Source: a virus
Length of the DNA stretch: 24,303 nt
Direction: 5' to 3' (one strand)
Virus record (IMG/VR): IMGVR_UViG_3300046371_000150
Location: 1-24,303 of that record
A program made the position numbers and the translations under genes. Under the pieces are notes generated by a model that saw only the letters and a list, made by a program, of their open reading frames with translations, was not told where the DNA came from and searched no databases. Positions 841 to 22,588 of this stretch are shown here, in pieces (position 1 is the stretch's first letter; each line of letters starts with the position of its first letter).

Positions 841-1045
841 ACTGTATCTCAATAGACCGATGCACTCCGGCTGGTTTCTTGATTGCGCCACGATCAACCA
901 GATTGTGGATGTGGTACTGAATGGTCGTGACGCCTTTACCCATTCCCGCCGCAACCTCGCGCACTGAGGGCGTGAAGCCGTACCTGCGCTGGTGTCGTGC
1001 AATCCAGCGCAACACCTCGCTCTGTGCCTTTGTAAGATTAGCCAT
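839..1045 (-). CDS. LexA-type winged-helix DNA-binding protein lacking the protease domain
   Basis: The 68-residue protein aligns along almost its whole length with the N-terminal winged-helix domain of LexA: LTKAQSEVLRWIARHQRRYG (4-23), then FTPSVREVAAGMGKGVTTIQ (24-43) as helix-turn-helix, then HIHNLVDRGAIKK and a short wing ending in HRSIEIQ. Full LexA is about 200 residues and has a C-terminal Ser/Lys self-cleavage (S24) domain; none is present here. The start ATG overlaps the end of the exonuclease gene by 8 bases, so the two are co-translated. A terminator follows. It probably represses or modulates phage or host promoters; without a cleavage domain it should not respond to RecA directly. 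A generic MarR/GntR-like wHTH is the alternative reading. Confidence 0.8.
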   Translation of the reverse strand: MANLTKAQSEVLRWIARHQRRYGFTPSVREVAAGMGKGVTTIQYHIHNLVDRGAIKKPAGVHRSIEIQ

Positions 1046-2003
1046 TTGGCACCTCTTTCACCGTCAGGGTTTTCTGCCGGACAATCGACTCTGGTTTTGC
1101 GGCAACCGTCTTAGCTGGTTGTGCGCGGGTTTTACGCATCGGCCACTTGATGTAATAACGCGAGCCGTCATAAGTCACTACGCCTTCCTCATGATTGCCC
1201 AGCATCTCTTTAAGGTTTGCCTCGGCAATGTCGATTTCCTGATCCAAGGCTTTCTTTTGCGCCTTGGCGTCAATCAGGATGCCAGCCCAGTAGTCTGCGG
1301 CCACCACGCCATCCAGATCAAGCGGCGGCGCACCATCGTCCACGTTATTCCACGCGGCGTTTGCGTCTGCTGACGTAATCGCCGGATACCAGTCGCCCAT
1401 CTCGATGTTACGCTCAAACTCGCGGATCGCGTTGGCAATCTCACCCTGCACCACAAGGTCGGCCTGATACATGAACAGGCGCAACTCACCGCCGCGATAC
1501 AGAACGGCAACGCAACCCCACTCATATCCGGCGCACATCATCTGCGCCTGTATCTGTAGGACGCCCCTGTGCGGCGCCGGAGCATCTTCGGCTATGACGC
1601 TGGTGTTCTTCGCCTCAAGGACGCCCACGCCGCTTATATCGACAGGCTGACCCTGTGGGCAGTAGATACCGTTGGCCGGATCGTGCGCGACCATCTGGGT
1701 GCCAGTGCCTTTGCCATCCAGCGATGCGGCAAGTGGTAGCGATGGGTGATGGATCGCCGCGTCAAAGTCGATGACCACATCGGTCAGGTTCAGACGCTTG
1801 GCGGCCTCGGTCAATATGACTGGCTCCAGCGTGTCGCCCCAGAACATCGGCTCGTTCTGCTCCAGCGACTGACGAGGCTTACCCTGACGCGCATCCAAGA
1901 TGGAACGCATCAGTTCGTTGGGTGTCTCGTATGGGCTGACGCCCATTAGCACAGGTATTCGTGATGCTGAAATAAGTGTATCAGGCGTAAGTTTACCGAC
2001 CAT
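1038..2003 (-). CDS. YqaJ-family (lambda exonuclease-like) recombinase nuclease
   Basis: The 321-residue protein is a PD-(D/E)XK exonuclease of the YqaJ type. The N-terminus shows the characteristic ISASRIPVLMGVSPYETPNEL (12-32) segment and WGDTLEPVI with Glu60. The catalytic core is Asp96 in AASLDGK, Glu130-Ala-Lys132 (VLEAK) and the QIQAQ motif (150-154). Members degrade one strand of duplex DNA to make ssDNA for annealing, normally with a RecT/Beta-type annealase; I see no such annealase here, and the ssDNA-binding-like protein at 4408-5052 is the likely partner. Length is usual for the family, with a lysine-rich C-terminal extension. Start ATG overlaps the previous stop as TAATG. Confidence 0.9.
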   Translation of the reverse strand: MVGKLTPDTLISASRIPVLMGVSPYETPNELMRSILDARQGKPRQSLEQNEPMFWGDTLEPVILTEAAKRLNLTDVVIDFDAAIHHPSLPLAASLDGKGTGTQMVAHDPANGIYCPQGQPVDISGVGVLEAKNTSVIAEDAPAPHRGVLQIQAQMMCAGYEWGCVAVLYRGGELRLFMYQADLVVQGEIANAIREFERNIEMGDWYPAITSADANAAWNNVDDGAPPLDLDGVVAADYWAGILIDAKAQKKALDQEIDIAEANLKEMLGNHEEGVVTYDGSRYYIKWPMRKTRAQPAKTVAAKPESIVRQKTLTVKEVPNG

Positions 2004-10782: not shown

Positions 10783-12279
10783 ATGGCACAGCAATACGAG
10801 TATGGGTTCCTGCCGGAAGATGAGAAATATCTCGGATTGCTTGGCAATATTTTCTCGCCTATGCGCCGCGAGGTGCTAGAAGCCCCCACAACCGAATATG
10901 TTGATGTTATTGACGCGCCAGTGGGAACGCAGGTTCCTGTCACCACCGAGGGCGTTTACGGCGACCCTGAGTTCGGCTTGCAGTATATGCCAGCCTATCA
11001 GGCGGTGTCCGGCTTGCTTGGCCTTGAGGCGGATCAGATAGTTGACGCCGCGAAGGCCGCGCCAGAGGCGTTGCGCCAGATGGCCAACCAGCAGGTGATG
11101 TCCGGCGTTGATATGGCGACTGGCGGCACCGGAGTTCTTGTTGACGATGAGGGCAACGAGTTCGGCTATGACTCCCTTCTTGTGGCCGCGCCACTAGCCC
11201 CCGCAGGTATAGCGGCCAGATCGGCTGGCGGTGCCACGCTCGGTGCTTTGGGTGGTAAGCTGACCAAAGCTGAAAAAGACCCTATGAAATACTCCGGCAT
11301 TGAAATGCCGTACCGCATTGAAGATACCCCGATGGAAATACAGGACACATCAGGGCTTCTAATGCCAAAAAGGCAGATTGACCTTGAGTCGCTTCAAGGC
11401 AAGTTGCTCATGCCATTTTTTACTGACCGTAGCGCAATCGGCGGCAAGGTTGAGTCAGTTGATGGCATTAAGTTGACAGAGCCAGTTGACTTGGAAGGTG
11501 GTTCAGGATTTATGCGTGGTCAGGCCGCGCAGGGTGAGGACGCCCTGTGGGCTAGTAAGCAGACCATTACTAGCAAGATGGTCAACAAAGCACAAAAGTC
11601 ATCTGATGAGGCTGGCGGCGCGGATGTTGTGGGCGTCAATGTTGTTATGGGCGTGGATGCCATAGATCATTCGACTATGCCGACAAAAATAGTTTCCAGA
11701 ATGTTGCCAAATATGGAAATTAAAAAAGCGGATAAAAAAGCGTTTGATGACGCTATGAAAAAGATAGACGAAGATTTTGTTGGCATAGACTCAAAAGATT
11801 TAGAAAATTATCTTGATAATTCCTCTGGCGATGTCAGAAAACAGTTTATCCGCTTGATGGATAAGTCCACCGCCAGAAAGGCTGGTTTCCCAAATATCGG
11901 CGCAGTAAGACGCGCTGTCACTGATCCGGAACTTTATGACACGCCTACTTTTTCGGAAGGTGTGTCATTCGGTCAAATGGATATAAACAACCCTATAATT
12001 GAAAATCCACAATTTCCGCACACGACTTACTCTGGGCAGATAAGAGGGTATTCGCCTGACCAACGCGGCGGTTACATTGGCGGCCTTTTGGGTGATCTTG
12101 CCCCGCAGGGTACTTTCTTCCCAGACTCATTCAATGCGCTTTCGTCTCAGTTAGATAAAAAGGGAAATCTGCTCACACCCCCGAACATAAAATATTCCCA
12201 AGAAAAACAGTTGCCAACACAGATGGTTGACCAGCAAGTGCTAGACACCCTCATGCAAAATTCACTCTTGGGAAGATAA
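10783..12279 (+). CDS. Probable virion protein with a module resembling large polyvalent phage proteins
   Basis: The 498-residue product starts directly after the terminase stop. Residues 1-60 are acidic/polar; 120-160 hold a small-residue, moderately hydrophobic stretch (LLVAAPLAPAGIAARSAGG). From about 196 the pattern LESLQGKLLMPFFTDRS (201-217), VDGIKLTEPVDLEGGSGFM and GEDALWASKQ resembles a module I know from very large polyvalent proteins carried in phage and plasmid particles; here it stands alone. From about base 11640 the DNA becomes more AT-rich than neighbours, suggesting a separate origin of the C-terminal half. Role (ejected effector or internal head protein) is inferred. A 57-residue gene overlaps its end on the other strand. 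Confidence 0.6.
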   Translation: MAQQYEYGFLPEDEKYLGLLGNIFSPMRREVLEAPTTEYVDVIDAPVGTQVPVTTEGVYGDPEFGLQYMPAYQAVSGLLGLEADQIVDAAKAAPEALRQMANQQVMSGVDMATGGTGVLVDDEGNEFGYDSLLVAAPLAPAGIAARSAGGATLGALGGKLTKAEKDPMKYSGIEMPYRIEDTPMEIQDTSGLLMPKRQIDLESLQGKLLMPFFTDRSAIGGKVESVDGIKLTEPVDLEGGSGFMRGQAAQGEDALWASKQTITSKMVNKAQKSSDEAGGADVVGVNVVMGVDAIDHSTMPTKIVSRMLPNMEIKKADKKAFDDAMKKIDEDFVGIDSKDLENYLDNSSGDVRKQFIRLMDKSTARKAGFPNIGAVRRAVTDPELYDTPTFSEGVSFGQMDINNPIIENPQFPHTTYSGQIRGYSPDQRGGYIGGLLGDLAPQGTFFPDSFNALSSQLDKKGNLLTPPNIKYSQEKQLPTQMVDQQVLDTLMQNSLLGR

Positions 12280-20405: not shown

Positions 20406-21134
20406 ATGGCCACAGGCACCCCGCACCTAGATAACTTTGTCACAAGCATTGACGCGCTACCATATTCACTGGATAGCGCGTTACTGCTAACAAAGGTTGA
20501 CTGGTCTAACCCTACCCTAGAGCAATTAGATAACTGGGGTACGCTGGAGCAGTTGGATGCGTATGGCCTGACGCTGGATCAGCTAGACCAGCTAGAGGTT
20601 ATCCACTTTGACGGTAGCGCGGCAGTAGCCGTAACGGCCACAGGTGCCGTGCAGTTTGCCATCGAGTTCGCCGGAACTGCGGCGGTTGCTGTATCCGCAA
20701 CAGCCACCCCGCAACACACGCAAGCAATGGCAGGAACCGCCGCAACAGCCGTCACATCCGCAGGTACGGCTAACAGGGTTCAGAACTTCGCGGCGTCAGT
20801 CACTGGTGCTGGCTCGGTCACTGCTAACGCTACATTCATTGCATCATACGCAGGTTCGGGCGGGTTTGCCTTCGCGGCATCTGCCTCGGCGTTTCTTGTT
20901 TACGCCTTTGACGGCACCGCAGACGCGGCGTTCACTGCCACAGGCGCAACGACAGTTGACTACGTTATGGCGGGATCGTCAAACATTGCGGCGAGTGCTA
21001 CAATGACAGGCAAGGTGCTTGGCGAAGATTGGACTAACGTTGACGAAGGCACCGAGACGTGGACAGAGATTGCGGCTGGCTCGGAGATATGGAGCCAAGT
21101 CAGCGCAGGTAGCGAGGTTTGGTTGCAACAATGA
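20406..21134 (+). CDS. Repetitive Ala/Thr-rich tail protein with 20- and 10-residue repeats
   Basis: The 242-residue protein is made of repeats. Residues 36-63 hold TLEQLDN/Y-type units (period 9-10). Residues 68-204 hold six full and one partial unit of exactly 20 residues, each beginning F/M/Y-x-G/A with small residues alternating with Val/Ala/Thr, and a more variable second half. Residues 209-242 show W at 209, 219, 229 and 239 with GSE/GTE between (period 10). The N-terminus has TSIDALPYSLDSAL (13-26), repeated in the next protein. A beta-solenoid or fibre-shaft architecture is likely; host contact is inferred. The stop overlaps the next ATG. Confidence 0.8.
   Translation: MATGTPHLDNFVTSIDALPYSLDSALLLTKVDWSNPTLEQLDNWGTLEQLDAYGLTLDQLDQLEVIHFDGSAAVAVTATGAVQFAIEFAGTAAVAVSATATPQHTQAMAGTAATAVTSAGTANRVQNFAASVTGAGSVTANATFIASYAGSGGFAFAASASAFLVYAFDGTADAAFTATGATTVDYVMAGSSNIAASATMTGKVLGEDWTNVDEGTETWTEIAAGSEIWSQVSAGSEVWLQQ
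20607..21017 (+). repeat. 60-bp period (20-residue) coding repeat
   Basis: Seven consecutive units begin at residues 68, 88, 108, 128, 148, 168 and 188 (the last is 17 residues), all in register, with F/M/Y then D/A then G/A at the start. At nucleotide level the units have diverged, so the array is old rather than a fresh tandem expansion. Confidence 0.85.
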
Positions 21135-22588
21135 TTAGTTTTAGTGGACAATGGCTACCGGATCAGCCCGATTATAACAACGCTGGCGTCACAGTCGCGG
21201 AGAACGTAATCCCCGCACTGAACGGATACCGCAGTCTCAACGACTTTGTGGCGTACAGCAACGCGGCCACAGGAACTATCCTGAACGTATTTGCGGCGAA
21301 GGAAGATGACGGCACGGTGCAGTTGTTCGCCGGAGACGCGACAAAGCTGTACAAGTTTAACGCCGGAACAAACAACCTAGATGATGTCAGCAAGGCTGGC
21401 GGGTACGACCTGACAGGCGCAGAGCGTTGGGAGTTCGTACAGTTTGGAAACAAGGTTATCGCCACAGGCGGCACAGGCGAGGAGCCGCAGGTCTGGACTC
21501 TAGGCACAAGCACCGCATTCGCCAACTTGGCCGGATCACCGCCAAAGGGTGACTTTCTGGCTGTTGTGCGTGACTTCGTGTGGATTGCTAACGCCGACAC
21601 TGGTTCAGGCCGTGTGCCGTACAAGGCATACTGGTCTGCATTCGATGACCCGACAAGCTGGACAGCCGGAACAGGTCAGAGTGACTTTCAGGACATCCCC
21701 GATGCAGGTAATATCGTAAAGATCATAGGCGGAGAGTATTGCACGATCCTGATGGAACGAGCCATCGTGCGAGCCACATACACTGGCCTTCCTCTGGTCT
21801 GGCAGTTTGACAAGGTGGAGACAGCGCGTGGCTGTCAGGTTTCTGGGTCGGTGTGTAATATCGGCCACACCATTTTCTATTTATCCGATGACGGCTTCTA
21901 TATGTTCGATGGGCAGAGTTCCAAGAACATCGGGGCGGAGAAGGTGGACAAGCACTTCTTCAAGGATGTCAACTTCTCTTACAAGGATAAGATTACGTCC
22001 AGCGTTGACCCGCAGAACCAGATTGCGGTCTGGTCTTATGTGTCAAACAGCGCAGTCGATGACACGCCGGACAAGCTGTTGATCTATAACTACGCCACAG
22101 GTGGATGGTCATACGCAAACGTGACAGCCGACCTTATTGCGCCGTTCTTCACGGCTGGCTACACGCTGGAGAACTTGGACAACCTATCGACCAGCATCGA
22201 TGCGCTTCCTGCGTCTCTGGACTCGGCACTGTACAAGGGCGGCCAGTTCCTATTCGGCGGCGCAGTCGGTAATAAGATTTTCGCATTCTCAGGCGACCCA
22301 TTGAACGCGGTCATCGAGACAGGCGAGACAGGGCTTGCCACTGGCAACTTCACAATCGTCACCCGCGTGTATCCATACCATCGGGGCGGGTCAGTCACGG
22401 TGCAGATCGGCACCCGCAGTCTGCACTCCGAGTCGGCCACATTCACTGACGCAGTTGCCCCCAACGCTGACGGCTTCGCGCCGTTCCGCGCACAGGACAG
22501 ATACCACCGCGCTAGGATGAACCTGACAGGAAACTGGGAGTTCGCTCAAGGTCTGGATATTGACGCCAGAAAGGTTGGCAGACGATGA
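21131..22588 (+). CDS. Beta-rich tail hub protein (P22 gp10-like)
   Basis: The start is ATG 21131 (MISFSGQWLPDQPDYNNAGV), overlapping the previous stop as ATGA; an upstream TTG is rejected. The 485-residue protein opens with a typical PDQPDYNNAGVTVAENVIPA stretch and continues as a series of beta-blade-like elements: TILNVFAAKEDDGTVQLFAG, YKFNAGTNN, ERWEFVQFGNKVIATGG, IFYLSDDGFYMFDGQ and QIAVWSYVS. These fit beta-propeller-type tail hub or stabilising proteins (gp10-like). Near residue 354 is TSIDALPASLDSALYKGG, a block shared with the preceding repeat protein. It would close the neck and bind tail appendages. Confidence 0.72.
   Translation: MISFSGQWLPDQPDYNNAGVTVAENVIPALNGYRSLNDFVAYSNAATGTILNVFAAKEDDGTVQLFAGDATKLYKFNAGTNNLDDVSKAGGYDLTGAERWEFVQFGNKVIATGGTGEEPQVWTLGTSTAFANLAGSPPKGDFLAVVRDFVWIANADTGSGRVPYKAYWSAFDDPTSWTAGTGQSDFQDIPDAGNIVKIIGGEYCTILMERAIVRATYTGLPLVWQFDKVETARGCQVSGSVCNIGHTIFYLSDDGFYMFDGQSSKNIGAEKVDKHFFKDVNFSYKDKITSSVDPQNQIAVWSYVSNSAVDDTPDKLLIYNYATGGWSYANVTADLIAPFFTAGYTLENLDNLSTSIDALPASLDSALYKGGQFLFGGAVGNKIFAFSGDPLNAVIETGETGLATGNFTIVTRVYPYHRGGSVTVQIGTRSLHSESATFTDAVAPNADGFAPFRAQDRYHRARMNLTGNWEFAQGLDIDARKVGRR

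What the first reader, a model, noticed from the sequence alone, without database searches (positions are those of the whole stretch)
20406..21134. Tail protein built from three repeat types with strict periods 9-10, 20 and 10
The 242-residue protein has TLEQLD-type units, then six full plus one partial repeats of exactly 20 residues without a single insertion or deletion, then tryptophans exactly every 10 residues to the C-terminus (209, 219, 229, 239). Strict period with diverged sequence implies a repetitive fold such as a beta-solenoid or trimeric shaft ending in a Trp ladder that could bind sugars.
Basis: partly seen in the sequence, partly recalled or inferred. Interest (0 to 1): 0.62.

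Follow-up and report, generated by a model that had tools for sequence, protein, structure and literature searches.

The report
Rope protein for phage bead fibres
This repetitive phage protein is most likely the thread of a beads-on-a-string appendage on a short-tailed virus, with fibre-docking loops at its ends, and genes of the same design sit beside the bead gene in very different phages.

Summary
ORF 20406-21134 (242 aa) has LD units at residues 37, 46 and 56, seven 20-residue units at 67-206, and Trp at 209/219/229/239. The period is far above chance and kept in about 126 distinct homologues: 20-aa spacing dominates, 10-aa Trp spacing occurs in 438 of 470 intervals, and all four Trp are invariant in 31 aligned sequences.

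The protein lies between a homologue of GP4 'fiber I' bead protein gp80 and the tail nozzle. Across 20 phages with gp80 (podo-, sipho- and myophages), a neighbouring gene has a significant ~20-aa period in 17. Six genomes with the nozzle but no gp80 lack one. Background is 3 of 433 ORFs.

The N-terminal LD motif copies a loop of the downstream nozzle. That loop aligns with SU10's fibre dock loop, where three Trp grip one trimeric fibre.

Best reading: a rope/linker protein of the gp80 bead fibre, with trimer-docking motifs at the ends. The fold stays unproven: AlphaFold2 monomers are low confidence (pLDDT 41-49), though both show two strands per unit. A sugar-binding Trp ladder has no support. 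No Pfam or PHROG family covers the protein.

The parts
20406..21134 (+). Repeat protein P0001 (242 aa), proposed rope/linker of the gp80 bead fibre
   Evidence: SD-like AGGTGA 6 nt upstream of ATG
20421..20483 (+). Residues 6-26, dock-loop-like set A (LDNF / SIDAL / SLDSAL), 76% identical to a nozzle loop
   Evidence: (E 8.7e-4 within the record); dN/dS 0.04 over residues 1-62
20514..20591 (+). Residues 37-62, second LD triplet (TLEQL / TLEQL / TLDQL, spacing 9 and 10)
20604..21023 (+). Residues 67-206, seven 20-residue units, each predicted as two beta-strands
   Evidence: period; strand pattern, low confidence; family consensus unit
21018..21131 (+). Residues 205-242, C-terminal W-x-x-V/I repeats, Trp every 10 residues, proposed trimer-docking tail
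   Evidence: analogy with the SU10 gp17 loop
20009..20395 (+). gp80 homologue (bead protein of GP4 fiber I)
   Evidence: Pfam PF23140 E 7e-44; 8jou_a E 1.8e-12, 10 chains in that entry
21131..22588 (+). Nozzle protein; likely start ATG 21131 overlapping the TGA of the repeat gene
   Evidence: 8zkk/8zkm nozzle E 1e-15 or better; 9nwi_Y by profile; ATGA overlap
22169..22231 (+). Nozzle fibre dock loop (ENLDNLSTSIDALPASLDSAL), source or twin of set A
   Evidence: hhalign places it on the SU10 gp17 dock loop
19361..20005 (+). Adaptor protein, SU10 type
   Evidence: PF24175 E 5e-37

Best explanation
P0001 is the linker ('rope') of a bead-chain appendage at the tail vertex of a SU10/GP4-like podophage. 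Its row of 20-residue, two-strand beta units is the segment along which gp80 beads are held (inferred), so unit number would set the length or bead number (inferred). Its ends carry repeated [T/S][W/L/I]xx[L/I/V] motifs of the kind that, in the nozzle fibre dock loop, grips one trimeric fibre with three quasi-equivalent contacts. Two LD triplets at the N-terminus and the Trp series at the C-terminus would therefore attach the rope to trimeric fibres or their sockets (inferred). Shown here: the repeats, their conservation, the gp80 association and the motif shared with the nozzle.
For: (1) The gene lies between gp80 and the nozzle in essentially all homologous loci. (2) In 17 of 20 gp80-bearing records a neighbouring gene has a significant 20-22 (or 40) residue period: 15/19 versus 3/433 other ORFs, Fisher p 8e-22. 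Six gp80-negative, nozzle-positive genomes have none of this type. (3) This holds in podophages, Gram-positive phages (PVJ1, Lietuvens, SP-15) and mycobacteriophages; in PVJ1 and Lietuvens the repeats are fused to the Mu Gp48 wedge protein, whose Mu counterpart bears the fibre docking loop. (4) P0001 6-26 is 76% identical to a nozzle loop; an independent phage shows the same rope/nozzle match (L059, E 2e-4). (5) That nozzle loop aligns with SU10's dock loop, whose three Trp each contact one subunit of a trimeric fibre, and with a three-Trp segment of the Pa223 nozzle 9nwi. (6) C72C1, Venkman and MW202481 encode fibres with a similar N-terminus (NTDI..I.I.EG..P..VNN..R). (7) N-terminal dN/dS is 0.04 against 0.30 in the repeats.
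Against: No structure or experiment. That GP4 fiber I has gp80 dimers joined by a rope protein is recalled from the GP4 abstract; the paper is not held, and no PDB chain matches rope candidates from the closest relatives. Trp counts (3, 4, 6, 7) are not all multiples of three. GP4-like ropes and several others lack a regular Trp series. The neighbouring gene is strictly adjacent in only 14 of 20 records; in the others I chose it 2-8 genes away. The hhalign match to SU10 is weak (single-sequence template, probability 5%, E 0.009). phiM5, Itty13 and CRP-4 show weak or no period.
Confidence: 0.6

Rival explanations
1. It is a trimeric tail fibre: the N-terminus docks to the virion, the 20-residue repeats form a beta shaft, and the C-terminal Trp ladder is the receptor-binding (sugar-binding) tip.
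For: Architecture N-anchor / repetitive shaft / conserved tip fits a fibre; gene in the fibre region; weak structural matches include DUF2807 adhesin-like solenoids.
Against: The C-terminus is strictly Trp-conserved with few other constraints and ends at the last Trp, unlike variable receptor tips; it is predicted without regular structure in L087; Trp in a similar pattern serve fibre docking in SU10. Separate fibres exist in related phages. Association with gp80 is unexplained.
Confidence: 0.17
2. It is a fibre-docking adaptor only: a monomer with dock loops at both ends that branches extra trimeric fibres off the nozzle, with the beta units as a passive spacer; gp80 does not bind it.
For: Nozzle-like loop duplicated at the N-terminus; Trp series at the C-terminus; Gp48 fusions in two myophages.
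Against: Does not explain why the repeat gene and gp80 occur together in phages with unrelated tails, including ropes without dock motifs (BcepMigl, CSP3).
Confidence: 0.15
3. It is a head or neck decoration (whisker-like) protein, with gp80 as a capsid-edge protein, unrelated to host attachment.
For: PHROG labels gp80 relatives 'head protein'.
Against: The label is annotation only; the nozzle dock motif and Gp48 fusions place the family at the tail.
Confidence: 0.08

Closest known systems
Podophage GP4 fiber I (gp80 beads plus rope protein; 8JOU, PF23140)
   Same: gp80 homologue next door; in GP4 relatives (BcepMigl gp57, CSP3) the gene after gp80 is also a 20-residue repeat protein
   Different: No BLAST-level similarity between those ropes and P0001 was seen; different N-termini; no LD triplets or Trp series in them
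SU10 nozzle gp17 short-tail-fibre dock loop (PMC9509320)
   Same: Three short repeats W/L-x-x-hydrophobic about 7-10 residues apart; the window's own nozzle loop aligns to it
   Different: In P0001 the motif sits in a separate protein, in several copies; L/I replaces W at the N-terminus; the Trp series has 3-7 members in the family
Mu Gp48 (BW3) baseplate wedge with fibre docking loop (PMC11915804)
   Same: In PVJ1 and Lietuvens the 20-residue repeats are fused to Gp48; PVJ1 ends in [W/F]xx[L/I/V] repeats
   Different: P0001 has no Gp48 domain
A-1(L) cyanophage bead-chain neck fibre gp82-gp81-gp80 (PMC10966104)
   Same: Beads-on-a-string appendage at the neck, five per virion
   Different: Its beads are globular trimers of gp81; its 'gp80' shares only the number with GP4 gp80 as far as known (homology not tested); no rope protein described
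DUF2807 / DUF4097 beta-solenoid proteins
   Same: Repetitive beta coils; weak matches
   Different: No significant sequence or structure match

Membership tests
GP4-type fiber I rope protein | Gene paired with a gp80 bead gene | tested here: met
GP4-type fiber I rope protein | Repetitive chain able to be elongated | tested here: met
   Strict 20-residue repeat; elongation itself only inferred
GP4-type fiber I rope protein | Sequence homology to the GP4 rope protein | tested here: inconclusive
GP4-type fiber I rope protein | Physical binding of gp80 dimers along the chain | not testable with these tools
   Needs complex prediction or experiment
SU10-type trimeric-fibre dock loop | Three short repeats with Trp (or Leu/Ile) about 7-10 residues apart | tested here: met
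SU10-type trimeric-fibre dock loop | Each repeat contacts one subunit of a fibre trimer | not testable with these tools
   Known for SU10, not tested for P0001
Trimeric beta-shaft tail fibre | Confident regular beta fold | tested here: inconclusive
   AF2 monomers pLDDT 41.5 and 49.3 with two strands per unit; no trimer run possible
Trimeric beta-shaft tail fibre | Homology to known fibre families | tested here: not met
   No significant Pfam, PHROG or PDB match
Carbohydrate-binding Trp ladder | Glycan binding | not testable with these tools
   No carbohydrate-binding family matched

The most novel reading that the evidence does not exclude
A phage-wide modular rope family: a 20-residue beta unit threads gp80 beads in podo-, sipho- and myophages, and its ends carry copies of the nozzle/baseplate trimer-docking loop, so that one protein chain organises both a bead string and extra trimeric fibres, with unit number acting as a length ruler.
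Probability: 0.3. Interest if true: 0.72.

Novelty: new variant of a known kind. Interest (0 to 1): 0.55.

Why it matters
These genes are annotated with chance names (serine-rich adhesin, HERC6, portal protein, ribonuclease E) and have no curated family. Recognising them with gp80 as a two-gene bead-fibre module would annotate an appendage in many environmental phages. The shared dock motif would give a sequence rule for where trimeric fibres attach, which matters for understanding host range and how fibres are exchanged between phages.

Tried and rejected
Direct family search (Pfam, PHROGs) and PDB sequence search of P0001: nothing significant. AlphaFold2 with 30 and then 83 homologues: low confidence; used only for the strand pattern. 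Foldseek: no significant match. GP4 record and paper: not in the collections. PDB search with the ropes of GP4 relatives: nothing. Chance repeat rejected by shuffles and homologues. Sugar-binding ladder judged less likely than docking. The idea that each three Trp dock exactly one trimer fits SU10 but not the observed counts of 4 and 7, so it is not claimed. The A-1(L) neck fibre was considered and set aside. In one search two Burkholderia rows used an antisense ORF; the direct test of those genes is.

Full report
Observation. ORF 20406-21134 encodes 242 aa. Residues 67-206 are seven consecutive 20-residue units; the lag-20 score is 1.12 against -0.18 +/- 0.17 in shuffles. The C-terminus has Trp at 209/219/229/239 and a lag-10 score that no shuffle reaches. 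The N-terminus has TLEQL, TLEQL and TLDQL at 37, 46 and 56. The short LD repeats alone are only modestly above chance, but they are the most conserved part of the protein: 93% identity and dN/dS 0.04 in residues 1-62, against 52% identity and 0.30 in the repeats.

Relatives. 55 IMG/VR loci hold close homologues, nearly all 241-245 aa; three have one extra unit (264 aa, one unit of 22 residues) and one starts at the LD repeats. About 160 further members came from two distant seeds. In 126 distinct proteins the consensus unit is about ASIxAxATVTAxAxRVxxGS. The commonest spacing is 20 (564 intervals), with 1-10 units detected per protein; the Trp series has 3, 4, 6 or 7 members, spaced 10 in 438 of 470 intervals. 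Some close relatives share several units and differ in others, as if units were exchanged. All four Trp are invariant in 31 sequences although neighbouring columns vary.

Surroundings. The window is a 24.3 kb virus fragment with SU10-type portal, major capsid protein and adaptor, then a gp80 homologue (PF23140, 'Podophage GP4 fiber I protein gp80'; 8jou_a E 1.8e-12), then P0001, then a nozzle homologue. The nozzle ATG overlaps the P0001 stop (ATGA). Almost every homologous locus long enough to tell keeps gp80 - P0001 - nozzle.

The gp80 link. From memory of the GP4 abstract (paper not held), fiber I is five gp80 dimers joined by an elongated rope protein; 8JOU does hold ten gp80 chains. In GP4 relatives BcepMigl and CSP3 the gene after gp80 is also a 20-residue repeat protein. 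Of 20 gp80-bearing records, 17 have a near gene with a significant period of 20-22 or 40. They include Psychrobacillus phage PVJ1, Sporosarcina phage Lietuvens, Bacillus phage SP-15 and two mycobacteriophages. Automated comparison: 15/19 versus 3/433 other ORFs, p 8e-22. This overstates the case somewhat, since in six genomes the gene was chosen from within a few genes and two rows picked an antisense ORF. Six genomes with the nozzle but without gp80 have no such gene; in MW202710 the nozzle follows the adaptor directly. P0001 itself is joined to the other families by shared architecture and by BLAST chains, not by one alignment to all of them.

The dock motif. A search of the window with P0001 found residues 6-26 again inside the nozzle (76%, E 8.7e-4). 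The nozzle segment is conserved as YTLExLDN-SIDALPASLDSALY. hhalign places it on the SU10 gp17 segment PIWSDFQEITWDDPSIKELVW (weak by score but at the matching point of the chain, after the propeller and before the C-terminal domain). That is the SU10 fibre dock loop: Trp 839, 847 and 857 form a quasi-threefold star and each contacts one subunit of the trimeric short tail fibre (PMC9509320). The Pa223 nozzle has three Trp at the aligned place. P0001 thus carries the nozzle motif once, a second LD triplet, and a Trp series of W-x-x-V/I at its end. In PVJ1 and Lietuvens the repeats are fused to a Mu Gp48 wedge domain; Mu gp48 bears the fibre docking loop (PMC11915804), and PVJ1 ends in PWREL/PWSEV/SFAEI/KWRDL/RWKQL/TFKQI. 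Fibres with a fitting N-terminus are encoded by C72C1, Venkman and MW202481.

Structure. AlphaFold2 (monomer) gives two strands per unit but pLDDT 41.5 (P0001) and 49.3 (regular member L087); the Trp tail is unstructured in the latter. Foldseek finds only insignificant matches, mostly beta-solenoids and left-handed beta-helices. The fold is therefore undecided.

Verdict. I favour a rope for gp80 beads with docking ends (0.6 for the rope role; the docking role of the ends about 0.45).

Noticed in passing
L233:8500-9525 and L236:5385-6308: In two Gram-positive myophages the 20-residue repeats are fused to the Mu Gp48 wedge protein directly after gp80; PVJ1 ends in six [W/F]xx[L/I/V] repeats.
   Followed up: partly
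L235:7875-9029 and L238:3726-4934: Mycobacteriophage minor tail proteins near gp80 homologues combine about 20-residue repeats with a Gly_rich_2 domain.
   Followed up: partly
L060:5187-5903, L234:7065-8591, L059:6108-6938: Members are misnamed in public records (HERC6 ubiquitin ligase, ribonuclease E, serine-rich adhesin).
   Followed up: no
L026:197-922 versus L028:3086-3811; L004/L005/L008: Close relatives differ by whole blocks of units, and one lineage has an extra unit, which suggests unit exchange by recombination.
   Followed up: no
window 10783-12279: 498-aa ORF after the terminase large subunit with no Pfam or PHROG match (C72C1 has an unnamed ORF at a similar place).
   Followed up: no
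L230:37561-38322 and L237:5503-6318: Zobellviridae members start with repeated E-x-GDSRI-T/S-E motifs instead of LD triplets, another possible docking module.
   Followed up: no
window 1038-2003 (-): YqaJ/RecE-like exonuclease on the opposite strand to the structural genes.
   Followed up: no
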